Made by a program: the position numbers and the translations under genes
Shown: positions 1,471-16,437 of the stretch, one piece after another
Layout: the number at the start of each line of letters is the position of its first letter
How positions within the stretch are numbered: position 1 is the first letter of the stretch
The notes under the pieces: model-generated
What the model saw: only the letters and a program-made list of their open reading frames with translations
What the model was told of the DNA's origin: nothing
The model's database searches: none
NCBI RefSeq assembly: GCF_040939785.1
Contig: NZ_CP162553.1
Span: 5,599,001-5,663,000 of the forward strand
Reading direction: 5' to 3'
DNA length: 64,000 nucleotides
Source: Bradyrhizobium lupini
GTDB lineage: Bacteria > Pseudomonadota > Alphaproteobacteria > Rhizobiales > Xanthobacteraceae

Positions 1471-1642
1471 GTTCCGTGCGCGCCCAATTACCTTCGTTTC
1501 TTTCGCGGAATGTTAATCATGTCGCGTCTTGGCGCGGTGCGAGGGGACTGCAAAAACGACTTGGACACCATGGTGGCGCTAGCGTCAGTTGCAAATTTTC
1601 CCGATGCCTCCGGGTCTAGCGATGTTCGCCTCCGATTGTGCC

Positions 1643-4207
1643 ATGACAGAAACTCCGGAAGTGCTATTGGCCGCGCTCGAACGCGCCGACGAGGGCATCG
1701 TCATCGTCGACAGCGCGCATCGCATCACGCATTTCAATGCCGGTGCGGAGCGGATCTGGAAACTCGCACGCGCTGATGTGCTCGGTCACGACGCCGAAAT
1801 TCTCACCCTCAAATGCCTTCAGGCCGATCCGGTTGCAGAATTCCGTGACGAGATCAGCCTCGTGCGAAACGACGGCAGCCGCATCCGGGCGGCCATCTCG
1901 CTTTCATCCATTGCAAGTGGAGGCATCACCTATCGCATCGTGTTCGTGCGCGACGTCACCGCGGATGCCGAACGCCGCGCCAGGATCGGGCTTCTCCACG
2001 CCGTCTCCGACCAGACCAACCGCGCGGTGCTCATCACCGACACCGACCAGAACATCGTCTACGTCAATGCCGCCTTCACGACGCTGTTCGGCTACACCAG
2101 CGAGGAAGCCGAGGGCCGCCGTGCCAGGGGCCTGCTCGCCGGCCGCCACACCGATCGCAAGGCCGTTGCGAAGCTCGTCAAGCGCCTGATGGAGGGTGGC
2201 CACCGCGGCGAGGTCGAGATGCTCGCCTATGACAAGGACGGCGAGGAGATCTGGGTCTGCGCTCGCATCGATGCCTTCCGCGACAGGAAGGGCCAGGTCA
2301 AGCACATCTTCGCGCTGCTCGAGGATATCACCGAGACCAAGCAGCTGCGCTCGCTGCAGCAGCTCATCATGGGCGCGCTGGCTGACGAGGTTCCGATCGG
2401 CGAGATCGCCGACCGGCTGTGCCGCCGTGTCGAGCAGATCGCGCCCGACGTCGTCTGTTCGCTGCTTCATATCGATGCCGCGGGCCTGATCCATCCGCTC
2501 GGCGGCCCAAGCCTGCCCGAGGACTATTCCCGCGCACTGGACGGCGTTGCCATCGGCCCCAATGTCGGCTCGTGCGGAACCGCGGCCTTCTACGGCGAGC
2601 CGGTGCTGGCGACGGATCTGGAGACCGATCCGCGCTGGCGGCCGTACAAGGCGATGCCGCTCGCGATTGGCCTGCGCGCATGCTGGTCGACGCCGGTCAA
2701 GGCCAAGGACGGACGGGTCATCGCCACGTTCGCCTTCTACTACCGGGAGCCGCGCGCGCCGAGCAATTGGCATCGGCGCATCGTCGAGGCCTGCGTCAAT
2801 CTCGGCGCTTTCGCGATCGAGCGCAAGGAAGCGCGCGCCGAGATCGCGCGGCTCGCCTATCACGATATCCTCACCGGCCTGCCGAACCGCGCGCAATTGC
2901 GGCGCCTGATCACCACCGCCATCGATGCCTGCCCGACCGGCAGCCACGTCGCGCTGGCCTTCCTCGACGTCGATCATTTCAAGGACGTCAACGACACACT
3001 CGGTCATGCCGCCGGCGACGAGCTCCTGATCCAGCTCGCGCAGCGCCTGCGCGAGCAGATCGGGCCCGAGGACATGCTGGGGCGACTCGGCGGCGACGAG
3101 TTCGTGATCCTGCTGCCGCAGCGCAACGCCGAGGGTGCCGAGCGCGTCGCGGCCGGAATCACCGAAGCGCTGGCCGCGCCGCTGCGGCTCGGCTCGAGGC
3201 AGCTGCAGATGTCGGCGAGCATCGGCGTCAGCCTCTATCCCGATCACGCCACCGACATCGACACGCTGATGCAGCAGGCGGACGCGGCCATGTACATGGC
3301 CAAGCAGGCCGGCCGCTCGACCCATCGCCTGTTCAGCGCCGAGATGAACGGGCTCACCGAGCAGCGGCTGGCCTTGATTGCGGCGCTGCGCCGCGCCATC
3401 GCCGAGGGCGCGCTGACCCTCCGCTATCAGCCGCAGATCCGCAGCTGCGACGGCGCGATCCATGGCGTCGAGGCGCTGGCGCGCTGGCACGATGCCGAGC
3501 TCGGCGACGTCTCGCCGGCAAAATTCATCCCACTCGCCGAAGAGTGCGGCCTGATCGAGCAGATCGGCCTGTGGTCGGTGCGCGAGGCCTGCCGGCAGAT
3601 GGCGAGCTGGCGCCGCGCTGGGCTGAACATTCCATCCGTGTCGGTGAATCTGTCGCCGATCAATTTCCGCAACGTCACGCTGGCCGCGCGGCTCAAGGAT
3701 ATCCTCGCCGAATACGATCTGCCGGCGGATGCGCTGATGCTCGAGATCACCGAGGGCGCGTTCATGCAGGACAGCGTCGCCGCGCTCGAGACGATGAACG
3801 CGATCCGGGAGCTCGGCGTCGGGCTTTCCGTGGACGATTTCGGCACCGGCTATTCCAGCCTCAGCCGGCTCGCCCATCTGCCGATCCGCGAGCTCAAGAT
3901 CGACCGCAGCTTCATGCGCGACATCGAGCGTGACGCCGGCGCGCTCGCGATCGCCACCGCTGTGGTGCGCGTCGGGCAGGGCCTCGGCATGACTGTCGTC
4001 GGCGAAGGGGTTGAGACCGAGGCGCAGCGCAAGGTGCTGGCCGAGCTCGGCTGCGACGTCGTGCAAGGCTTCCTCTACGCGCCCGCGCTGGCGCCCGTCG
4101 CGTTCGAGCGCTGGCTGATCGAGCACTGCGCCGAGCAGGCGCAGGCGATGCTGGCTCGTCTCGACATTGCACCGGCCGGCGCGACCGCGGTGAAGCGGTC
4201 GGCGTAG
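1643..4207 (+). CDS. PAS-PAS-GAF-GGDEF-EAL cyclic-di-GMP signalling protein
   Basis: This is a bifunctional-architecture c-di-GMP protein of about 854 residues. In order it has PAS at about 5-110, PAS at about 125-235, GAF at about 255-400, GGDEF at about 410-575 and EAL at about 590-840. The cyclase active-site motif GGDEF is intact (first Gly near residue 483). The position of the inhibitory RxxD site reads GPED, so product inhibition at the I-site is probably absent. The EAL domain keeps EAL, the SVNLSP Asn, EITEG, DDFGTGYSS, LKIDRSF, the VGEGVET Glu and the VVQGF Gln, so phosphodiesterase activity is plausible. There is no transmembrane segment, so it should be a cytosolic sensor. The start is uncertain (TTG 1589, ATG 1604, 1622 or 1643) because no clear ribosome site precedes any of them. 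Confidence 0.92.
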   Translation: MTETPEVLLAALERADEGIVIVDSAHRITHFNAGAERIWKLARADVLGHDAEILTLKCLQADPVAEFRDEISLVRNDGSRIRAAISLSSIASGGITYRIVFVRDVTADAERRARIGLLHAVSDQTNRAVLITDTDQNIVYVNAAFTTLFGYTSEEAEGRRARGLLAGRHTDRKAVAKLVKRLMEGGHRGEVEMLAYDKDGEEIWVCARIDAFRDRKGQVKHIFALLEDITETKQLRSLQQLIMGALADEVPIGEIADRLCRRVEQIAPDVVCSLLHIDAAGLIHPLGGPSLPEDYSRALDGVAIGPNVGSCGTAAFYGEPVLATDLETDPRWRPYKAMPLAIGLRACWSTPVKAKDGRVIATFAFYYREPRAPSNWHRRIVEACVNLGAFAIERKEARAEIARLAYHDILTGLPNRAQLRRLITTAIDACPTGSHVALAFLDVDHFKDVNDTLGHAAGDELLIQLAQRLREQIGPEDMLGRLGGDEFVILLPQRNAEGAERVAAGITEALAAPLRLGSRQLQMSASIGVSLYPDHATDIDTLMQQADAAMYMAKQAGRSTHRLFSAEMNGLTEQRLALIAALRRAIAEGALTLRYQPQIRSCDGAIHGVEALARWHDAELGDVSPAKFIPLAEECGLIEQIGLWSVREACRQMASWRRAGLNIPSVSVNLSPINFRNVTLAARLKDILAEYDLPADALMLEITEGAFMQDSVAALETMNAIRELGVGLSVDDFGTGYSSLSRLAHLPIRELKIDRSFMRDIERDAGALAIATAVVRVGQGLGMTVVGEGVETEAQRKVLAELGCDVVQGFLYAPALAPVAFERWLIEHCAEQAQAMLARLDIAPAGATAVKRSA

Positions 4208-4973: not shown

Positions 4974-5165
4974 GTGGCAAACACAGCAACGATCCGAAAT
5001 TCGAACGGACTTCCGGCCACATTCACGGGATCGAAGACCGGGCAGGACGACGCTCCGTTTGTCTTCGTCAAGGTCGGCGATGAAGAGCGCCGCATGCGAA
5101 GGGCCGAATGGGATGCGCTTCCGCCCTGGACCGGTCCGCGCCCGGCACGAACAGTCAACGACTGA
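4974..5165 (+). CDS. Small hypothetical protein, first gene of the mannose operon
   Basis: This 63-residue acidic/basic mixed protein has no signal peptide or membrane segment. The GTG start at 4974 follows a perfect AGGAGG at 4963-4968, the strongest ribosome site in the region, so translation is credible despite the small size. It contains FVFVKVGDEERRMRRAEWDA and ends 24 bases before manA on the same strand. That places it at the head of the manA-glycosyltransferase-GH130 operon. I recognise no family and assign no function. Confidence 0.7.
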   Translation: MANTATIRNSNGLPATFTGSKTGQDDAPFVFVKVGDEERRMRRAEWDALPPWTGPRPARTVND

Positions 5166-5189
5166 TCGCACAGCCTTGGGGAGTCCCGC

Positions 5190-6155
5190 TTGACGGTCGA
5201 ACATGCCATCGTGCGAACCAAGCCGAAGCCCTGGGGCAGCCTCGATCTGCGGCCCTGGAGTGAGACGTCGACGAGCGACGGGCCGATCGGGGAATTGTGG
5301 TTCGAGCGCCCGGGTCTTGCTGCGCCGAAGACGACGTTGCTGCTCAAAATGCTCTTCACCACCGAGCCCCTGTCGATTCAAGTTCACCCGGATGATGCGT
5401 TCGCGCGCTCGATCGGCCTTGCCAACGGCAAGACCGAAGCCTGGTACATCGTCTCTGCGATCCCTGGTGCCGGGGTCGCGGTGGGGCTGAACCATCCGCG
5501 CTCCGCCGCGGAGTTGCGAACCGCGATCACTGATGGCTCGATCGCCGATATCGTGGATTGGCAGCCGGTTCATCCAGGCGACGTCATTCTCATTCCTGCT
5601 GGAACGATCCACGCGATCGGCGCCGGCATCGTGCTCGTGGAAATCCAGCAGCACAGCGACGCCACGTTCCGGCTGTTCGACTATGGACGAGCGCGCGAAC
5701 TGCACATCGACCATGCCGTCGCGGTGGCGACGGCAGGCCCACGCCAGATTCAATCGCCGTCCGAACGCCTGAGCGGCGCGCGAACGGTCCTCACGGTCAA
5801 TTCCTATTTTGCGCTGGAGCAGACGGACCTTGCTCCTGGCTCCGTTTGGATGCTCGACGCACCGAAAGAGACCTGGCTGCTGGCGATCGAAGGCCACGCC
5901 CAACTCGGCTCGACGAGGCTGGCGCCGGGGGAGGCGTTCTTCCTGGAAGCCGACCACGCGGAAATCGAGGTCGGTGCGAGCGGCTTGAAAGCGCTGCTGG
6001 CCTATCCCGGCCCGAAGATAAACCCTGCTGCGCTAACAGAGCGCAGCGCCGCGAGCGCCAGTCGCGCACCGCACGCCTTTCCCGGCACCTTGGTCCCGTC
6101 TCCCGTCGAGACCGCCACGCTCAAACAATCGGAGACGCCAAATTGGCTGCCGTAA
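5190..6155 (+). CDS. manA: Mannose-6-phosphate isomerase, class I
   Basis: This 321-residue cupin-fold metalloenzyme should interconvert mannose-6-phosphate and fructose-6-phosphate in the cytosol. Visible family features are the N-terminal KPKPWGS segment, the metal-binding region IQVHPDD near residue 65, GKTEAWYI, the conserved PAGTIHAIGAG segment near 150 and the EIQQ(H)SD motif. The length fits the short bacterial ManA type. The start is TTG 5190, with GGGGAG seven bases upstream. Its end overlaps the next gene, also started by TTG, by 13 bases, which indicates translational coupling. Its place beside a glycosyltransferase and a GH130 phosphorylase suggests it links a mannose-containing glycan to central metabolism. 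Confidence 0.93.
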   Translation: MTVEHAIVRTKPKPWGSLDLRPWSETSTSDGPIGELWFERPGLAAPKTTLLLKMLFTTEPLSIQVHPDDAFARSIGLANGKTEAWYIVSAIPGAGVAVGLNHPRSAAELRTAITDGSIADIVDWQPVHPGDVILIPAGTIHAIGAGIVLVEIQQHSDATFRLFDYGRARELHIDHAVAVATAGPRQIQSPSERLSGARTVLTVNSYFALEQTDLAPGSVWMLDAPKETWLLAIEGHAQLGSTRLAPGEAFFLEADHAEIEVGASGLKALLAYPGPKINPAALTERSAASASRAPHAFPGTLVPSPVETATLKQSETPNWLP

Positions 6156-8419
6156 ATCGTATTGCATTCATCGGCAATTCGCTTCCCCGCCGCTGCGGCA
6201 TCGCGACCTTCACCACCGACTTGCAGAGCGCCGTTGCGGCGTCCCGGAGTGATCTGGAGACGGTCATCGTCGCGATGACCGATCACGGCCAGGTCTACGA
6301 TTATCCTGCCACCGTGGGCCTGGAGATCAACGACGACAGGCAAGATGATTATGTCCGTGCGGCTGCCTATCTGAATAGCGGCGGCTTCGAGGCCGTTTCG
6401 CTGCAACACGAATTCGGCATTTTCGGCGGCGAAGCCGGATGCCAGATCATGGCGCTTCTGTCGCGCCTGACCATACCGATCGTGACAACCCTGCATACGG
6501 TCTTGTCCGAGCCGACCGAGGCTCAGCGCGACGTCATCACGCGCATCGTCGAGTGCTCGTCCAAGATCGTCGTGATGGCTGAAAAAGGCCGGGAGTTGTT
6601 GCGCTCCGTCTATCACGTGGCTGACGAGAAGATCGAGATCATCCCGCAAGGCATCCCGGAATTTGCGTTCGTCGAACCCGACGCGGCCAAGGCTGCGCTC
6701 GGATTCAGCAACAAGTCGGTCATCCTGACCTTCGGATTGCTGTCGCCGAACAAGGGCATCGAAGTCATGATCGATGCGATGCCTTCGATTCTGAAGACCC
6801 GACCCGACGCCGTTTACGTCGTCCTCGGTGCGACGCATCCCAACCTCGTGCGCGACCGTGGCGAAGCTTATCGTGAGTCCCTGATGGCGCACGCGCGCCA
6901 GGCTGGCGTCGAGGATCACGTCGTGTTCCTCGATCAGTTCGTCGACAAGAAAACGCTGCTCGATTTCATCTCGATGTCCGACGTCTACGTGACGCCGTAC
7001 CTCAGTGAGGCCCAGATGACCTCGGGCACGCTGGCCTACAGTTTTGGCCTCGGTAAAGCCGTGGTGTCCACCCCGTATTGGCATGCCCGTGAACTATTGG
7101 CCGAGGGCCGCGGCATCCTGGTTCCGTTTGGCGACGCGGCAGCGCTCGGCATTGAAATCGCCAAGTTGCTCACCAACGACGTGCTTCGGCAGGCGATGCG
7201 CAAGCGCGCCTTTTCGAGCAGCCGCGCGATGACATGGGAAAGAACCGCCGAGCGCTATATGTCGGTCTTCGAGAACGCCGGCCGCCGGCATCGGCTCAAG
7301 ACCATCGCGCGTATGGATACTGGCACGCTGCTGCGCGACAGCCGCGCCCCGCCGGAAATGCAGCTCGGCCATTTCCTGTCGATGTGCGACGACACGGGAC
7401 TGTTTCAGCATGCCGTTCATAGCGTGCCGGATCGTGCCCACGGCTATTGCGTCGACGACAACGCCCGGGCGCTGCTCGTGGCCTGTGCGCTCAACAATCC
7501 GGGTGAAGAGCGGCTGCCGGAAGCGCTGACGGCGCGATTTGCCGCTTTCGTCCAGCACGCCTGGAATCCGGATACACGACGATTTCGCAATTTCATGGGC
7601 TTCAACCGCTGCTGGTTGGAGGACAAGGGGTCGGAGGACAGTCACGGACGTACGCTCTGGGCCTTGGGCGTGTGCGCGTTGACCGACGCCAGCTCGTCGC
7701 GGCGCTCATGGGCCGCGGCCTTGTTTTCCGAAGCAATGGCGACAGTGGAAGATTTTCGTTCGCCCCGTGCGTGGGCGTTCGTATTGCTGGGCCTCGATGC
7801 TTACTGCTCGGCTGTCCCGGGCGATGTCCAGGCGACCCGCCTGCGTGCCGTGCTTGCCGATCGGTTGATCTTGATCTTCGACACCGTGGCAACCGGCGAT
7901 TGGGTCTGGTTCGAGGACGGGTTGGCCTATGATAACGCGCGCTTGCCCCAGGCGCTGATCATAACCGGTCTTGCCATCAAGACATCGCGCTATGTCAATA
8001 TCGGGCTGGAGTCGTTGCGCTGGCTTGTGAAGCGGCAAACCTCAGCGAAAGGCCAATTCCGCCCGATCGGCACGGCGGGGTTTGGCGATCGACGCCAGCC
8101 GTCGCAAGCCTTCGACCAGCAGCCGCTGGAGGCCGCGGCGACCATCGCGGCATGCCTCGCCGCATGGCGGGCCGATCACGATGTCGAGTGGAAAGCCGAA
8201 GCCGCGCGGGTCTTCGCGTGGTTTCTGGGCAGCAACGACCTGTCGGCCTCGCTGGTCGATCTGGAGACCGGAAGCTGCCGGGATGGCCTGCACCCCGATC
8301 GTCCCAATGAGAACCGCGGAGGGGAATCCGTGGTGTCTTATTTGCTTGGGCTTTCCGAGATTCGGCAAATTGCCCGCCTGAGCGAAAGCCGGGCCAAGCC
8401 TGCTCCTCTCGTCGCTTGA
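6143..8419 (+). CDS. GT4 glycosyltransferase fused to a C-terminal barrel-like domain
   Basis: This 758-residue two-part cytosolic protein starts with TTG 6143, preceded by GGAG and overlapping manA. Residues 1 to about 375 form a GT-B glycosyltransferase of family 4. They include IAFIGNSLPRRCGIATFT (the glycine-rich N-terminal loop), LQHEFGIFGG, FGLLSPNKGIEVMI at the start of the second Rossmann domain, and SGTLAYSFGLGKAVVSTPY in the donor-binding region. Residues about 395-758 form an all-helical domain with SVPDRAHGYCVDDNARALL, GRTLWALG and NENRGGESVVSYLLGL, which looks like an (alpha/alpha)6 fold. The fusion next to manA and GH130 suggests synthesis of a mannose-containing oligosaccharide. 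Donor and acceptor are unknown. Confidence 0.88.
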   Translation: MAAVNRIAFIGNSLPRRCGIATFTTDLQSAVAASRSDLETVIVAMTDHGQVYDYPATVGLEINDDRQDDYVRAAAYLNSGGFEAVSLQHEFGIFGGEAGCQIMALLSRLTIPIVTTLHTVLSEPTEAQRDVITRIVECSSKIVVMAEKGRELLRSVYHVADEKIEIIPQGIPEFAFVEPDAAKAALGFSNKSVILTFGLLSPNKGIEVMIDAMPSILKTRPDAVYVVLGATHPNLVRDRGEAYRESLMAHARQAGVEDHVVFLDQFVDKKTLLDFISMSDVYVTPYLSEAQMTSGTLAYSFGLGKAVVSTPYWHARELLAEGRGILVPFGDAAALGIEIAKLLTNDVLRQAMRKRAFSSSRAMTWERTAERYMSVFENAGRRHRLKTIARMDTGTLLRDSRAPPEMQLGHFLSMCDDTGLFQHAVHSVPDRAHGYCVDDNARALLVACALNNPGEERLPEALTARFAAFVQHAWNPDTRRFRNFMGFNRCWLEDKGSEDSHGRTLWALGVCALTDASSSRRSWAAALFSEAMATVEDFRSPRAWAFVLLGLDAYCSAVPGDVQATRLRAVLADRLILIFDTVATGDWVWFEDGLAYDNARLPQALIITGLAIKTSRYVNIGLESLRWLVKRQTSAKGQFRPIGTAGFGDRRQPSQAFDQQPLEAAATIAACLAAWRADHDVEWKAEAARVFAWFLGSNDLSASLVDLETGSCRDGLHPDRPNENRGGESVVSYLLGLSEIRQIARLSESRAKPAPLVA

Positions 8420-9768
8420 CGGAGCAGGATTACGATTTCCTCCTTCAACCCATCGAGGCCGTCTTGTCGCAATCTCCCTTCCTCAAACGTCAAGCCCTTC
8501 AGCTGCGGCCTGATCCGACCCGTGTCATCGTTCGGCCTTTCAAGCCGGCAACAGAGCCGCGCGACCTCAATCCGACGGACAAGACCCGCGCCAACCATAT
8601 CGTCGAACGGGTCCTCGCGCTCGATGCCGAGACGGCTGACCGGCAATTGGCCGACGTTCTGGAGAATTTCCTCGGCCGTCACCGCAACCTGTTGCAGATA
8701 TTCGAGACACGCGCCGCGGAAATGGAAGAGGCGCTGGCCGACCATGCTGTATTCACGCAGGTGCAGCGCCAACTCGCGGGCGCCTATTTTCTCAACGAAT
8801 ATTCGTTCGAGGCCTCGGCATTGTTCAATCCGAGTATCGTGCCGCATCCCGATCAATCCGGAACGCCGGAAGGCAGCCTTCGCTTCATCCTAAGTCTTCG
8901 TGCCGTCGGCGAGGGTCACGTGTCGTCCCTGACATTTCGCTCGGGGCTTATTGCGGCAGACGGGACCGTGACCATCGACCCGACGGCGCGCCTTGCATCC
9001 AGCCCCGATCTCGTCAAGCTGACATCGGGCGCCGGCGGCGACGAGATTGATGTTACATTTGCGGCCGGCCAGGATCTGAGCGAGCGGGTGATTTTCCCGG
9101 TCACTGAAGCGCAGTCGAACGGGATCGAGGACGCCCGCTTTGTGCATTTCAGCAACGCCGGCGAGACGATCTACTACGCGACCTACACCGCTTATAGCGG
9201 ACGGGCGATCCGGTCGGAGCTGATCGAGACGTCCGACTTTGTATCGTTCCGGCTATCGACCCTGAAAGGCAGTGCCGCGCGCAACAAGGGCATGGCGTTA
9301 TTCCCGCGCAAGATCGGGGGCAGATATGCGATGATCGCGCGCCAGGACAACGAGAACCTCTATCTGATCTTTTCCGAAGACCTCCAGACGTGGGATGGCG
9401 GCCAGCCGATTCTGAAGCCGCGATACCCCTGGGAATTTGTGCAGATCGGCAATTGCGGATCACCCATCGAACTCGACGTCGGGTGGCTGCTTCTGACGCA
9501 CGGCGTCGGACCTTTGCGAAAATATTCGATCGGGGCCGCGCTGCTGGACAAGAACGACCCTTCGAAGGTGCTCGGCCGCCTGCGCGAGCCACTATTGCGC
9601 CCGGACCCTTCCGAACGCGAAGGATATGTTCCAAACGTCGTCTACACTTGCGGCGCGATGCGCCACCAAGACAAGATCATCTTCCCCTACGCGGTCTCCG
9701 ACAGCTACTGCAATTTTGCGACCATCGAGATCGCATCCTTGATCGCGGCCATGGACAGGAGCGCATAG
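8416..9768 (+). CDS. GH130 family glycoside phosphorylase/hydrolase
   Basis: This 450-residue protein has a five-bladed propeller family-130 domain covering roughly residues 115-440. Seen directly are the proton-donor region NGIEDARFV near residue 235, YYATYTAYSG, NKGMALFPRKIGGRYAMIARQ, WEFVQIGNCGSPIELDVGWLLLTHGVG and a C-terminal ifpY motif. GH130 enzymes typically phosphorolyse beta-mannosides to mannose-1-phosphate. About 110 helical residues precede the domain, more than in minimal members. The TTG start at 8416 overlaps the upstream stop as TTGA, so it is coupled to the glycosyltransferase. Specific linkage (beta-1,2 or beta-1,4 mannose) cannot be decided here. Confidence 0.9.
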   Translation: MTEQDYDFLLQPIEAVLSQSPFLKRQALQLRPDPTRVIVRPFKPATEPRDLNPTDKTRANHIVERVLALDAETADRQLADVLENFLGRHRNLLQIFETRAAEMEEALADHAVFTQVQRQLAGAYFLNEYSFEASALFNPSIVPHPDQSGTPEGSLRFILSLRAVGEGHVSSLTFRSGLIAADGTVTIDPTARLASSPDLVKLTSGAGGDEIDVTFAAGQDLSERVIFPVTEAQSNGIEDARFVHFSNAGETIYYATYTAYSGRAIRSELIETSDFVSFRLSTLKGSAARNKGMALFPRKIGGRYAMIARQDNENLYLIFSEDLQTWDGGQPILKPRYPWEFVQIGNCGSPIELDVGWLLLTHGVGPLRKYSIGAALLDKNDPSKVLGRLREPLLRPDPSEREGYVPNVVYTCGAMRHQDKIIFPYAVSDSYCNFATIEIASLIAAMDRSA

Positions 9769-9863: not shown

Positions 9864-10666
9864 TCAGGCATCCGGTTGCAGGAACGTGCCGTACTGCTTG
9901 GTCGCGGCGACCGCGGCCGCGGCCTGTCCGATCATCCGCATCGCGGCCATCATCGGCCACGGCCCAAGGCTGACCCGCCGAACGCCGACGCGAGCCAGAT
10001 CCGGAAGTGCGGGAACGCCTTGTGTCACCATGATGTTGACCGGCAGAGGCGTGAGCTGAACGAACTTTTCAATGAGAGCGAGGTCGGTGAGGCCGGGGAC
10101 GAAAATTCCGTCGGCGCCGGCCTCGGCATAGACCTTCGCCCGCCTTGCCGCTTCATTCATGCACTCGTCCGGCGATCCGAATTTCAGTAGGAACGGATCT
10201 GTTCTCGCATTGATGAATAGCTGAACTCCCAGATCTTTCGCGGCGTCGCGCGCGGCCTTGATCTTGGCGGCATGGAGTTCGGGATTGACCAGTTGCCGCT
10301 TTCCCCCGATAGCCCGTCCTCGATATTGATGCCGACGGCGCCGGCTTTCAAAATCTCGGTCGCCGATCTGGCGGCGGCCTCCGGGGTGTCGCCATATCCT
10401 GCCTCCAGATCGATTGAGACTGGAACCGACACGGCCGCAGTCATCCGCGATACGAGGCCAGTCACCATGTCGAACGGGACATTTTCTCCGTCGGCGTATC
10501 CAAGTGCGGAGGCGACCGCGCCGCTGCTGGTCGCGATGGCCGGAGCGGTCTTCGCGATGGCTTTGGCGGTGGCGGCGTCCCAGGCGTTGAACAGGACGAG
10601 CGGATCGCCCTTCCTGTGAAGGGCATGAAAGGTCTCGGCATATTGATGTTGTGTCTTGGCGTCCAT
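9864..10666 (-). pseudogene. Isocitrate lyase/PEP mutase-family protein, frameshifted
   Basis: Two overlapping pieces belong to one PEP mutase/isocitrate lyase superfamily protein. The N-terminal part has FNAWDAATAKAIAKT, the DLEAGYGDTP metal-binding segment and VGINIEDG. The C-terminal part has YAEAGADGIFVPGL and a GPWPMMAAMRM tail. The reading frame breaks at the C5 run 10303-10307 (G5 on the coding strand). Adding one base there restores SGGKRQLVNPELHAAKI and INARTDPFLLKFG, giving 267 residues, the family's normal length. The start at 10666 has GGAG eight bases upstream. Such proteins cleave or form C-C or P-C bonds on oxoacids. It is either a sequencing error or a recent pseudogene. Confidence 0.88.
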
Positions 10667-10722
10667 TGCGCGCACTCCAGATTAGAAAATCGAAGGATGT
10701 TGTGGGCCACCGCCCTCTGCGT

Positions 10723-12886: not shown

Positions 12887-13315
12887 TCAGCGCACGTTGG
12901 TCGATGTCGTCGACATGGTCGGCTTGGAGCCCGGCACGTGCGACATGGTCTTGGTGGTCGACCCGACCTCCTCGCCCGCCTTGACTTTCGTGCGGGTGTG
13001 GGAGCGGCTGAACGTACCACCCTCATGCGCCTGCGCGCGCGCATTGGAATTGAGCACCGGACCGTTGCCCTTGTTCATGCTGGTGCCGGACTGCGCCTTG
13101 CCGTTGGCAGACGCGGCGCTGCCGCCCGCTGCAATCGACGAGCCGGTCTGTCCGGAGCCCGACGTCGACGTGCCGCCGGTGCCGAGCGTGCTGGCCGAGG
13201 TGCCGCCGGCCGCGGCCGAGCCCCCAGTGCCGCCGGTCATGCTGGTTTGCGCCGACAACGGCGAGGCGGCGGCAAGCAGGAGTGCGACCGACGAGGTCGC
13301 GATCAACATTCTCAT
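12887..13315 (-). CDS. Secreted Gly/Ser/Thr-rich low-complexity protein 1
   Basis: This 142-residue protein has a signal peptide (MRMLIATSSVALLLAAASPLSAQ), then TGGTGGSAAAGGTSASTLGTGGTS-type low-complexity sequence, then a more basic C-terminal half rich in Ser, Thr and Lys. AAAGGA lies seven bases before the ATG. It is the first-described member of a set of three consecutive minus-strand genes for secreted Gly/Ser-rich proteins. No catalytic motif is visible, and an envelope-associated or structural role is only a guess. Confidence 0.75.
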   Translation of the reverse strand: MRMLIATSSVALLLAAASPLSAQTSMTGGTGGSAAAGGTSASTLGTGGTSTSGSGQTGSSIAAGGSAASANGKAQSGTSMNKGNGPVLNSNARAQAHEGGTFSRSHTRTKVKAGEEVGSTTKTMSHVPGSKPTMSTTSTNVR

Positions 13316-13331
13316 CTGTGAAATCCTTTTG

Positions 13332-13685
13332 CTATGGCGACGATGTCGAGATGGTGCAGCCGTTGACCGTGACGGTGCTCGCGCTGGTCGAACCCGGGCC
13401 GCCGGCCGTCGAGGACGAACTCGACACGTTGCCGCCACCGGCCTGGACGTGCACCGACGATCCGCCGGCCGAGCTAGAGCTCGACAGCGAGCCGCTCGAT
13501 GAGGTCGAGCCGGTGGTGCCCGAACCCGATGACCCCAGCGCGGTAATGCTGCCGTCGGGATGTTTTTCCACCGTGACCCGGCAGGTCTCGCCGGACGCGG
13601 TCTTGCCGGTTTTCTGCATGGTTTCCCCCGCAGCTGCGCTGCTCATCAAAGTCAAAACTGCGATCGCAACGATTGGTCTGTTCAT
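13332..13685 (-). CDS. Secreted Ser/Gly-rich low-complexity protein 2
   Basis: This 117-residue protein has a signal peptide (MNRPIVAIAVLTLMSSAAAG). A short conserved-looking stretch, GETCRVTVEKHPDGSITALG, follows, then a Ser/Gly-rich tail that ends with VTVNGCTISTSSP. The two cysteines flank the low-complexity region and could form a disulfide. GAGGAG precedes the ATG by seven bases. It sits 16 bases upstream (in minus-strand order) of protein 1, so the two are likely one transcript. Confidence 0.75.
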   Translation of the reverse strand: MNRPIVAIAVLTLMSSAAAGETMQKTGKTASGETCRVTVEKHPDGSITALGSSGSGTTGSTSSSGSLSSSSSAGGSSVHVQAGGGNVSSSSSTAGGPGSTSASTVTVNGCTISTSSP

Positions 13686-13710
13686 GCCAGTCCTCCTCAG
13701 GAAGGACGAA

Positions 13711-13732
13711 GGAGCGGCATTGCTGCCGCTCC
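13711..13732 (-). terminator. Hairpin after the repeat-protein gene
   Basis: GGAGCGGC and GCCGCTCC form an 8-bp stem with a 6-base loop just beyond the stop of the gene at 13745. There is no strong T-run, so it may be a weak terminator or a processing hairpin. Confidence 0.45.
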
Positions 13733-13744
13733 GCCGGCCGGATG

Positions 13745-14281
13745 TCAGTCCTTGTCCTTCTTCATCTCGTCCTTGTGGTGGCCTTTGCCCTTTTCCATGC
13801 CCATGTCGCTGGCATGTCCCGCGGAGGAGCCGGCCGCTCCCACGGTCGAGCCGCTCTTGCCGCCGCCGGCCGACGAGCCGCCCGTGCCGACTGTCGATGC
13901 CGAGTTGGAGCCGGAGCCTGCCGCAGAGCCGCCGGTGCCGACGCTGGACGAACTCTTGCCGCCACCCGCCGACGAACCACCGGTGCCGAGCGTCGAGGCC
14001 GAGCCTGAGCCGCTGCCGGAGCCTGCGGCGGAGCCGCCAGTGCCGATCGACGAACTGCTGGTGCCGCCGCCCGCCGACGAGCCGCCGGTGCCAAGCGTCG
14101 AGGCCGAGCCCGATCCGCTGCCCGAACCCGCCGATGAACCGCCCGTGCCTACGGTCGAGTTGCTGGTGCCACCGCCGGCTGACGACCCGCCAGTGCCGAC
14201 CGTCGAACTCGACTGGGCCACGGCGAGCGCGGTACCGGCCAGCAGCGCAGCTGCGGCCGCAGACAATTTCAGAATCCTCAT
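13745..14281 (-). CDS. Secreted repeat protein 3 (GTGGSSAGGG repeats)
   Basis: This 178-residue protein has a signal peptide (MRILKLSAAAAALLAGTALA), then eight tandem repeats of 15-19 residues of the type STVGTGGSSAGGGTS / STLGTGGSSAGSGSGSGSA from about residue 26 to 159. It ends with a charged tail MEKGKGHHKDEMKKDKD. Two repeat types alternate (GGGTS/GGGKS and GSGSGSGSA). GAGGAG precedes the ATG. The composition suggests a disordered exported or surface polymer-like protein whose basic, His-containing tail could contact the envelope. No family is recognised. Confidence 0.8.
   Translation of the reverse strand: MRILKLSAAAAALLAGTALAVAQSSSTVGTGGSSAGGGTSNSTVGTGGSSAGSGSGSGSASTLGTGGSSAGGGTSSSSIGTGGSAAGSGSGSGSASTLGTGGSSAGGGKSSSSVGTGGSAAGSGSNSASTVGTGGSSAGGGKSGSTVGAAGSSAGHASDMGMEKGKGHHKDEMKKDKD
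13805..14206 (-). repeat. In-gene tandem repeat, eight units of 45-57 bp
   Basis: The DNA coding for the GTGGSS repeats of the secreted protein is itself a degenerate tandem repeat that stays in frame. The unit boundaries follow the protein motif S-T/S-V/L/I-G-T-G-G-S. Alternation of a shorter and a longer unit suggests past duplication of a two-unit block. Confidence 0.75.
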
Positions 14282-14468
14282 CGCTGTCTCCTCGAATGAT
14301 CAAATTGCCAAAACAGGCACGGGATAAAGTGGCAAGCTGCAGAAACGTTCCTTGGATCGGTATGAGGATGTGGAAAATGCGCGCGAGAATTGCGACGAGG
14401 TTCCAGCGGCGCGGCGCGCCGATGCCGAGCGGGAACAGCGAAGCGCGACGATCTGAAGAAAACAAACG

Positions 14469-15079
14469 CTACTTCAACGACAATCCCGTCCTGCGCCGCA
14501 GATCCGTGATCGCGCGCAGAAAACTGTCGGCCGGCGTCGTCTCCGGATCGATCAGGCGGTGCAGGCGAAAGCCGTCTTCCAATGCCAGCACGACGGAGGC
14601 CATCCAGGGGGATTGAGCGTGTCGCCCTTCGCGTTGCTCTTCAGCGTTGCCTCGATGATGTCGGCGACCAGCTTGCGCCGCGCGCGCAGGCGCTTTGCAA
14701 GCTCCGGTAGGCGCTTCTCGGCGCGGGCGACAAACAGGATCATCTCCATGTGGAGCAGCGGCGAGCGGCCGAGCGGATCCTGCCTTGTGCGATCCATCGC
14801 CTTCAGCGCCGCGATGAAGTCGTCGAGATTGTCGTGCTGCGCGAGGATGTCCATGTTGCGCCGGATCGACTGCGCGACATGGTCCTCGAGCATGGCGATA
14901 ATCAGCTCGTCCTTGCTCTTGAAGTTGGAATAGAACGCGCCGCGGCTAAATCCGGCCGCCGCCGCGATCGCCTCGATGCTGGCGCCGCCGATGCCGTCCT
15001 GCTCGAACACGCGCGCCGCCGCCTCGAACAGCCTGTCGCGCGTGTCGTCCCTGGTCGGCCTAGTTCTCACCCTTGACAT
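14469..15079 (-). pseudogene. TetR-family regulator, frameshifted near the C-terminus
   Basis: The N-terminal TetR DNA-binding domain is intact: RDRLFEAAARVFEQDGIGGASIEAIAAAAGFSRGAFYSNFKSKDEL region, residues about 13-60. The frame as written ends early (14552) in an atypical WPPSCWHWKTAFACTA tail. Adding one base to the G5 run 14607-14611 restores PPWMASVVLALEDGFRLHRL and continues to TAG at 14469, for 203 residues in all, the usual TetR length. It is divergent from the cytochrome P450 gene, with a palindrome between, so it probably represses that gene. The break may be a sequence error. Confidence 0.88.
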
Positions 15080-15124
15080 CGGGGCAGTTTAGGGCAAAAT
15101 GCAACACGATACAACAATGTATCG
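15073..15124 (+). promoter_or_regulatory. P450 promoter with TetR operator palindrome
   Basis: TTGACA (15073-15078), a 16-base spacer and CAAAAT (15095-15100) form a plausible sigma-70 promoter pointing at the P450 gene. Just downstream lies CGATACA-ACAA-TGTATCG (15107-15124), a perfect 7-bp-arm palindrome at the expected transcription start. The -35 overlaps the TetR start codon, so one bound repressor could control both genes. Confidence 0.6.
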
Positions 15125-15206
15125 AGTTGATAATTCCGGGATGGTTACGCTGCGCAAGAGGGGCTGCGGCGTATGCGATTCATGCGGCAACCGATATGAG
15201 GTCACC

Positions 15207-16437
15207 ATGAACGAGCACGTGCAGGGCACCGGCGGTCCGCTGTTCAACCCGCTGTCGCCGGACTTCATCCGCGATCCCTATCCGCATTATGACCGGCTCC
15301 GCGCGATCTACCCGATTCACGTGACGCCGTTCGGCCAGTTCGTCGCCAGCCGCCATGCCGATGTCAGCCTCGTGATGCGCGACAAGCGTTTTGGCAAGGA
15401 TTTCGTCGAGCGCTCCAGGCGCCGCTATAGCGAAAAAGATCATGGAGGAGCCGGTCTTCCGCAGCATGAGCCACTGGATGCTGCAGGCCGATCCGCCCGA
15501 CCACACCCGCCTGCGCGGCCTCGTCGTGAAGGCCTTCACCGCCCGCCGCGTCGAGGACATGCGGCCACGCATCCAGGAGATCGTCGACCAGACCATCGAT
15601 GCCGTGATCGACCGCGGCCACATGGACCTGATCGAAGACTTCGCCTTCCGCCTGCCTGTGACCATCATCTGCGACATGCTCGGCATCCCCGAGGACCATC
15701 GCGAGACTTTCTATAACAGCTCGCGCGATGGCGGACGGCTGCTCGATCCCGTGCCGCTCTCGCCGGAGGAGATCGCCAAGGGCAACGCCGGCAACATGAT
15801 GGCGCAGATGTATTTCCAGCAGCTGTTCGAGCTTCGTCGCAAAAATCCCGGCCACGATCTCATCACCCAGCTGGTGCAGGCCGAGGAAGACGGCAACAAG
15901 CTCACCAACGAGGAACTGACCGCCAACATCATCCTTTTGTTCGGCGCCGGCCACGAGACCACGGTCAATCTGATCGGCAACGGCCTGCTGGCGCTGCATC
16001 GCAATCCGGACCAGCTCGCGCTTTTGAAGGCGCGGCCGGACCTGATGGTGGGCGCGATCGAGGAGTTTCTGCGCTACGATTCCTCGGTGCAGATGACCGG
16101 GCGGGTCGCGCTGGAGGATATCGACGATCTCGGCGGCGCCAAGATCCCCAAGGGCGAGACCGTGCTCTGCCTGCTGGGCTCGGCCAACCGCGACCCGGCG
16201 GTCTATCCTGACCGCCCCGACCGGCTCGACGTCACCCGCCAGAATGTGAGGCCGCTGTCGTTCGGCGGTGGCATCCATTTCTGCCTGGGGGCCCAATTGG
16301 CCCGGCTCGAGGCCGAGATCGCCATCGCCACGCTGTTGCGTCGGCTGCCCGACCTGCGCATCGACGACGTCGAAAACCCCGAATGGCGGCCGACCTTCGT
16401 GCTGCGCGGCCTGAAGCGGCTGCCTGCGAGCTGGTGA
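15207..16437 (+). pseudogene. Cytochrome P450, frameshifted
   Basis: This is a soluble bacterial P450 with the I-helix FGAGHETTVNL, the K-helix segment EEFLRYDSSVQ, and the heme-ligand motif FGGGIHFCLGAQLA. ATG 15207 has GAGG six bases upstream. The frame breaks at the A5 run 15433-15437; removing one A joins RRRYSEKIMEEPVFRSM and gives 409 residues, the normal length. The enzyme would hydroxylate a small hydrophobic substrate using ferredoxin or flavodoxin electrons; no redox partner gene adjoins it. It is divergent from the TetR gene. It may be a real pseudogene or carry a one-base error. Confidence 0.9.

What the first reader, a model, noticed from the sequence alone, without database searches (positions are those of the whole stretch)
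4974..9768. Mannose-linked glycan cassette: small protein, ManA, GT4-barrel fusion and GH130 in one overlapping operon
Four genes are tightly packed (24-base gap, then 13-base and 4-base overlaps). Seen: a ManA, a GT4 enzyme fused to a large helical domain, and a GH130 with an extra N-terminal helical region. GH130 enzymes normally phosphorolyse beta-mannosides; GT4 enzymes build glycosides. Having both in one operon suggests synthesis and recycling of a mannose-containing oligosaccharide, perhaps an osmolyte or reserve, whose product is not known to me.
Basis: partly seen in the sequence, partly recalled or inferred. Interest (0 to 1): 0.75.

Follow-up and report, generated by a model that had tools for sequence, protein, structure and literature searches.

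The report
Paired sugar-building and sugar-cutting gene cassette
A soil bacterium carries a tightly packed gene set, found again in distant bacteria, in which a sugar-joining enzyme fused to a second, barrel-shaped enzyme sits beside a member of a mannose-cutting enzyme family; the two are nearly always inherited together, but what sugar chain they make or recycle is unknown.

Summary
In detail: a 63-aa gene, a ManA-like cupin, a GT4 enzyme fused to an (alpha/alpha)6 barrel, and a GH130 are packed at 4974-9768. The GT4-barrel/GH130 pairing is conserved. The same 22 of 60 related genomes have both, adjacent; 38 have neither. Of 80 loci from Alphaproteobacteria, Verrucomicrobia, Ignavibacteriales and others, 74 have GH130 directly 3' of the barrel, 3 end at a contig edge, 3 lack it. 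ManA is variable: 38 of 80; 8 rhizobial loci have an AGE-type epimerase instead. The barrel resembles an uncharacterised exported protein and AGE epimerases by fold without a Pfam match. Best reading: an intracellular mannose-containing glycan turnover module, in which GT4 extends, the barrel trims and GH130 adds or removes beta-mannosyl units. GT4 (retaining) and GH130 (inverting, beta) should act on different bonds. Substrate, donor and direction are not shown. A GT4+GH130 cluster (Thermoanaerobacter) and a GT4+(alpha/alpha)6 hydrolase cluster (mycobacterial MMP) are the nearest precedents.

The parts
4974..5165 (+). small conserved protein, 63 aa, GTG start, no Pfam match; accessory, rare
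   Evidence: tblastn match in 4 of 80 loci
5190..6155 (+). ManA-like cupin (type I mannose-6-phosphate isomerase-like, below curated cut-offs), 321 aa, TTG start
   Evidence: the only TIGR00218 match in the 7.83 Mb genome
6143..8419 (+). GT4 glycosyltransferase fused to an (alpha/alpha)6 barrel, 758 aa, TTG start
6143..7303 (+). GT4 (GT-B) domain, residues about 1-387
7013..7039 (+). Q291-x7-Y299 at the place of the EX7E motif (ungapped reading)
   Evidence: Q291 48 of 48, Y299 47 of 48; Q..SG[TA]L in 78 of 78 homologues
7352..8389 (+). (alpha/alpha)6 barrel, residues about 404-749, no Pfam match, invariant acidic residues
8416..9768 (+). GH130-family protein, 450 aa; N-terminal helical region (helices between residues about 48 and 124) before the propeller
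9442..9444 (+). codon of GH130 Gln343, at the position where beta-1,2-mannoside phosphorylases and Uhgb_MS have Lys or Arg
   Evidence: alignments; Q in 45 of 45 and QxG[NTSA]CG in 78 of 78

Best explanation
A co-inherited enzyme module for turnover of an intracellular, mannose-containing oligo- or polysaccharide. SHOWN by sequence: the GT4-barrel fusion and a distinct GH130 subfamily are inherited and positioned together. INFERRED: the GT4 half extends a chain by retaining (alpha) transfer from a nucleotide sugar; the fused barrel is a hydrolase-like (or less likely epimerase-like) domain that trims the same chain, as MmpH does for ManT in the mycobacterial methylmannose polysaccharide pathway; the GH130 forms or breaks a beta-mannosyl (probably beta-1,2) unit on it, linking the chain to the alpha-mannose-1-phosphate pool or to another donor or acceptor; ManA-like or AGE-type proteins link released or supplied mannose (or its 6-phosphate) to fructose metabolism. 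No transport or export gene was seen to recur with the pair across the loci examined, which suggests a cytosolic product in this lineage.
For: Same 22 of 60 relatives hold both genes, adjacent; 74 of 80 loci. GT-barrel and GH130 distances correlate: r 0.879, 0 of 2000 permutations as high, 69 loci. ManA is joined to GT4-barrel in one open frame in a Hyphomicrobium MAG, L104. An AGE-type gene follows in 8 rhizobial loci, in none of which ManA was seen (7 have room upstream to tell; PF07221 tested on the L118 protein, the others by similarity to it). The barrel's invariant Asp/Glu and its fold point to an enzyme. In Ignavibacteriales L145 a stand-alone barrel (lipoprotein-like N-terminus by eye), a short GH130, a GH2 protein and ABC sugar-transport genes lie on one strand with the pair. 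GH130 closest to beta-1,2-mannoside phosphorylases by sequence and fold. Precedents: PMC4264767 (passages), PMC9883506 (passages).
Against: No donor, acceptor, product or direction is shown. The GT4 lacks EX7E and the GH130 has Gln at a presumed phosphate-binding position, so ordinary GDP-Man transfer or ordinary phosphorolysis is not assured. In L145 the context looks like uptake and breakdown. ManA was not found in 42 of 80 loci (8 of these end too close upstream to tell). Three loci have the fusion with 5.9-10 kb downstream and no GH130 (L094, L098, L108). pTM of the fusion model is 0.55, so domain placement is unsure.
Confidence: 0.4

Rival explanations
1. Catabolic salvage: imported mannoside oligosaccharides are cut by the barrel and phosphorolysed by GH130, giving alpha-Man1P for GDP-mannose, as proposed for Thermoanaerobacter; GT4 re-uses the product.
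For: L145 gene run with SBP, two permeases, second GH130 and GH2; the Teth514 cluster holds GT4, guanylyltransferase, ABC genes and two GH130 (PMC4264767, passages).
Against: No transporter family recurs widely beside the pair (largest, an ABC ATPase judged by eye, within 9 kb in 14 of the 90 loci put in). The window's nearest transporter, an MFS gene at 109-1467, is 3.5 kb upstream behind another gene. The linked GH130 lacks the Lys/Arg found in the phosphorylases.
Confidence: 0.25
2. The GH130-like protein is a beta-mannosyl transferase/synthase rather than a phosphorylase (as Uhgb_MS or GT108), building a bacterial mannogen-like beta-mannan primed by the GT4-barrel.
Confidence: 0.15
3. Soluble osmolyte: a small mannosyl disaccharide (mannosylglycerate type).
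For: GT4-type synthases and phosphorylases occur in osmolyte pathways (recalled; PMC8950772 passages mention phosphorylases of glucosylglycerol and glucosylglycerate).
Against: No osmolyte-type gene was recognised among the recurrent neighbours; a fused barrel and GH130 are not part of such pathways known to me.
Confidence: 0.05
4. Only neighbouring genes that travel together without a common pathway.
For: ManA and the small ORF are variable.
Against: Adjacency persists in several phyla, with order and strand changes (GH130 5' of GT in L054 and L055, convergent in L058), with GT4 and barrel as separate genes in one locus (L128), and with presence or absence as a pair.
Confidence: 0.03

Closest known systems
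Thermoanaerobacter sp. X-514 cluster Teth514_1785-1796 (PMC4264767, passages)
   Same: GT4 predicted alpha-mannosyltransferase beside GH130 beta-1,2-mannoside phosphorylases; these GH130s are the closest solved relatives of this one.
   Different: No fused barrel is described for its GT4 in the passages read; it has a mannose-1-phosphate guanylyltransferase and ABC transporter; its two GH130s have Lys/Arg where this has Gln.
Mycobacterial MMP cluster: ManT (GT4) and MmpH ((alpha/alpha)6 endomannosidase) (PMC9883506, passages)
   Different: Separate genes, methyltransferases, no GH130 in the described cluster; ManT has Glu313 (and Glu321, eight on) where this has no EX7E. Homology of MmpH to this barrel was not tested.
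AGE superfamily (cellobiose/mannobiose 2-epimerase) with GH130 mannosylglucose phosphorylase pathway
   Different: No PF07221 match to the fusion at E<=1; the barrel's conserved motifs (DDNAR, SEDSHGR, FDQQP, NENxGxES) differ from AGE motifs as I recall them.
7tem, putative exported protein YPO2471 (no function given in the entry title)
   Different: Named as exported; no GT4 part in the solved chain.
GT108 / Leishmania mannogen enzymes
   Different: Distant; sequence relation not tested.

Membership tests
GH130 | PF04041 over gathering score | tested here: met
   111.1 bits against 26
GH130 | propeller fold of known GH130 structures | tested here: met
GH130 | invariant catalytic Asp (GxED) | tested here: met
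   D239 45 of 45, aligned with phosphorylase GxED; invariance of this Asp in GH130 from PMC4599007
GH130 beta-mannoside phosphorylase | three basic phosphate-binding residues | tested here: inconclusive
   K291, R309, H362 kept, but Q343 replaces Lys/Arg, 45 of 45; which residues are the three is recalled, not read
beta-1,2-mannobiose phosphorylase (NF052550) | curated score cut-off | tested here: not met
   154.1 bits against 450
GT4 | Glycos_transf_1 over gathering score and GT-B fold | tested here: met
GT4 | EX7E retaining motif (motif name recalled) | tested here: not met
   second Glu is Tyr299 (47 of 48). First Glu falls on Gln291 (48 of 48) ungapped, or on residue 290 (Ala 41, Glu 1 of 48) in HMMER's gapped alignment to PimA
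GT4 | catalytic-site His (PimA His118) and donor-binding Lys | tested here: met
   H118 and K204 48 of 48; roles of the equivalent His and Lys in ManT from PMC9883506
AGE epimerase (PF07221) | Pfam match | tested here: not met
   no match of the fusion at E<=1
AGE epimerase (PF07221) | (alpha/alpha)6 barrel fold | tested here: met
type I mannose-6-phosphate isomerase (ManA) | TIGR00218 / PF20511 cut-off | tested here: not met
   66.7 against 116.2; 17.7 against 22
MMP hydrolase MmpH | sequence or structural homology | not tested
   no MmpH sequence at hand; only 50 rows are shown
GH130 | activity on beta-mannosides | not testable with these tools
   bench assay needed

The most novel reading that the evidence does not exclude
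A previously undescribed bacterial glycan pathway: a mannogen-like intracellular mannoside made and recycled by a GT4-barrel bifunctional enzyme with a non-EX7E donor site and by a GH130 subfamily that has lost one phosphate-binding residue and acts as a beta-mannosyl transferase, spread over several phyla.
Probability: 0.2. Interest if true: 0.8.

Novelty: new variant of a known kind. Interest (0 to 1): 0.58.

Why it matters
A conserved multi-phylum pair of carbohydrate enzymes with no product that I could find assigned is directly testable. It includes an enzyme-like barrel without a Pfam match, a GT4 without its signature glutamates and a GH130 with an altered anion site. If it makes a mannan, it would give bacteria a beta-mannoside turnover system comparable with Leishmania mannogen; if not, it would widen what GH130 and GT4 do.

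Tried and rejected
Shared conserved neighbours: clustering ORFs of 80 aa or more within 9 kb, from 90 loci put in, gave among families seen in 6 or more loci the core, short ORFs that I took for shadow ORFs, and longer proteins judged by eye as generic (ABC ATPase, histidine kinase, SDR, AKR, transglutaminase-like), apart from AGE in rhizobia. Pfam was run on 20 neighbour proteins from 9 loci only; 231 candidates had been listed. Promoter and terminator scans gave no more than chance (1 found, mean 1.3; 6 found, mean 5.3), so operon limits rest on packing alone. Osmolyte idea: no support found. 'ManA feeds GDP-mannose': the genome has two full-length bifunctional GMP-PMI genes elsewhere, so the operon ManA should not be needed for that. 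'Lys/Arg in all other GH130': of four further GH130s near related loci, three have Lys/Arg and one (L054) has Thr, so Gln is a mark of this subfamily, not proof of lost phosphorolysis. MmpH is not among the rows shown; that is no evidence. Literature: nine answered searches listed no paper that I recognised as being on a GT4-barrel/GH130 pair; the library holds open-licence papers only, and I saw listings plus passages of six papers (PMC8950772, PMC4599007 with sections 19 and 20, PMC4264767, PMC9883506, PMC11131427, PMC6657660). The last two only report GH130 genes in archaea. One search gave 73 paired loci and 34 with ManA because long stop-to-stop ORFs threw off its distances, by match positions, gives 74 and 38.
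Full report
WHAT IS THERE. The window lies in a 7.83 Mb single-contig genome; its nearest named relatives are Bradyrhizobium. Between 4974 and 9768 on the + strand are four packed genes: a 63-aa protein, a ManA-like cupin (321 aa), a 758-aa GT4 fusion and a 450-aa GH130. Pfam matches cover only the GT4 half of the fusion. The ManA-like protein stays below the curated cut-offs but is the only TIGR00218 match in the genome. Two full-length bifunctional GMP-PMI genes lie elsewhere, so this gene should not be needed for housekeeping GDP-mannose.

CONSERVED PAIRING. Of 60 relatives (own genome included), 22 have the GH130 and 22 have the barrel; they are the same genomes, each with both adjacent on one contig, and 38 have neither. 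In an evenly drawn class sample, 7 of 385 genomes have the barrel and 8 of 385 the GH130. All 7 have both; the eighth, G066, has a GT4 match cut by its contig end near the GH130 (L057). A scan of genome contigs kept the best 80 of at least 559 relatives, so it favours close ones. A GH130 match starts within 700 bases 3' of the barrel match in 74 of 80; in 3 the contig ends (L134, L142, L143); in 3 (L094, L098, L108) it is absent with 5.9-10 kb downstream. Order is not fixed: GH130 precedes the fusion in L054 and L055 and is convergent with it in L058. A long GH130 copy without a fusion beside it exists in L053. For 69 loci with both proteins near full length, pairwise distances correlate at r 0.879; none of 2000 permutations reached it, the highest being 0.294. 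Relatedness of the hosts contributes to this.

VARIABLE PARTS. ManA lies 5' in 38 of 80 loci; 34 lack it with at least 1.2 kb upstream, and 8 end too close. Eight loci named Rhizobium, Neorhizobium, Rhizobiaceae or only Rhizobiales have an AGE-type gene 3' of the GH130 (PF07221 for the L118 protein; the others by similarity to it). None has ManA, but one of them (L117) ends too close upstream to tell. This may be one evolutionary event. In a Hyphomicrobium MAG (L104), ManA and GT4-barrel form one open frame. In a Sphingomonadales MAG (L128), GT4 and barrel are separate genes with the same motifs; an assembly fault cannot be excluded. In L098, L113 and L114 the two halves lie in neighbouring open frames; I did not ask why. 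In Ignavibacteriales L145, on one strand, lie a solute-binding protein, two permeases, GT4-barrel, long GH130, a short GH130 with Lys at the site discussed below, a stand-alone barrel with a lipoprotein-like N-terminus (by eye) and a GH2 protein whose mannosidase Ig-domain matches stay below cut-off.

The EX7E motif is missing. Residue 299, opposite its second Glu in PimA, is Tyr in 47 of 48. Counting eight back gives residue 291, Gln in 48 of 48; HMMER's alignment to PimA instead sets the first Glu opposite residue 290 (Ala 41, Glu 1 of 48) with Gln291 as an insertion. Residue 289 is Glu in 35 of 48, so a shifted Glu could help in some members. H118 and K204 are kept in 48 of 48. The Q..SG[TA]L signature is in 78 of 78 homologues, and in the three database proteins printed, two of them named Pirellulales and Calditrichia. 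In ManT the corresponding Glu313 is needed for full activity (PMC9883506, passages).

HOW IT MOST LIKELY WORKS. GT4 enzymes retain configuration and GH130 enzymes invert and act on beta-mannosides (established family knowledge; PMC8950772 passages), so the two should not make and break one bond. The MMP pathway gives a model in which an (alpha/alpha)6 hydrolase makes primers that a GT4 extends (PMC9883506, passages). Here both activities would sit in one chain, with the GH130 adding or removing a beta-mannosyl unit. Whether the flow is synthetic or degradative is open: L145 looks catabolic, while the window, with no transporter in the packed set, looks like internal turnover.

RELATION TO KNOWN SYSTEMS. 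GT4 beside GH130 is published for Thermoanaerobacter (PMC4264767, passages). The fusion, the missing EX7E, the Gln343 mark and the multi-phylum pairing did not appear in the listings and passages that I saw. I class it as a new variant of a known kind.

Noticed in passing
window 9867-10675 (- strand): A PEP-mutase-family gene, convergent with GH130, is split into two reading-frame pieces matching profile positions 1-109 and 156-239; it looks broken here.
   Followed up: partly
window about 14460-16434: A TetR-like gene and a cytochrome P450 gene each match an intact open frame of a relative (L068) in pieces in different frames, so both look frame-broken here or the sequence has indel errors.
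   Followed up: partly
window 12887-14465 (- strand): Small Gly/Ser-rich proteins with repeated GTGGSSAGGG-type units in neighbouring open frames.
   Followed up: no
L104:7715-11209: ManA, GT4 and barrel in a single open reading frame of a Hyphomicrobium MAG.
   Followed up: yes
L145:12103-13380: Stand-alone barrel with lipoprotein-like N-terminus (by eye); 3532 homologues at E<=0.001 among 6429 candidates; 118 of the 120 listed carry no Pfam domain, and most are unnamed or 'hypothetical': an unassigned enzyme-like family.
   Followed up: partly
L053:9677-11341: A second long GH130 copy without a GT4-barrel neighbour in a genome (G071) that also has a pair.
   Followed up: no
window 1589-4207: PAS-GAF-GGDEF-EAL protein upstream of the cassette.
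   Followed up: no
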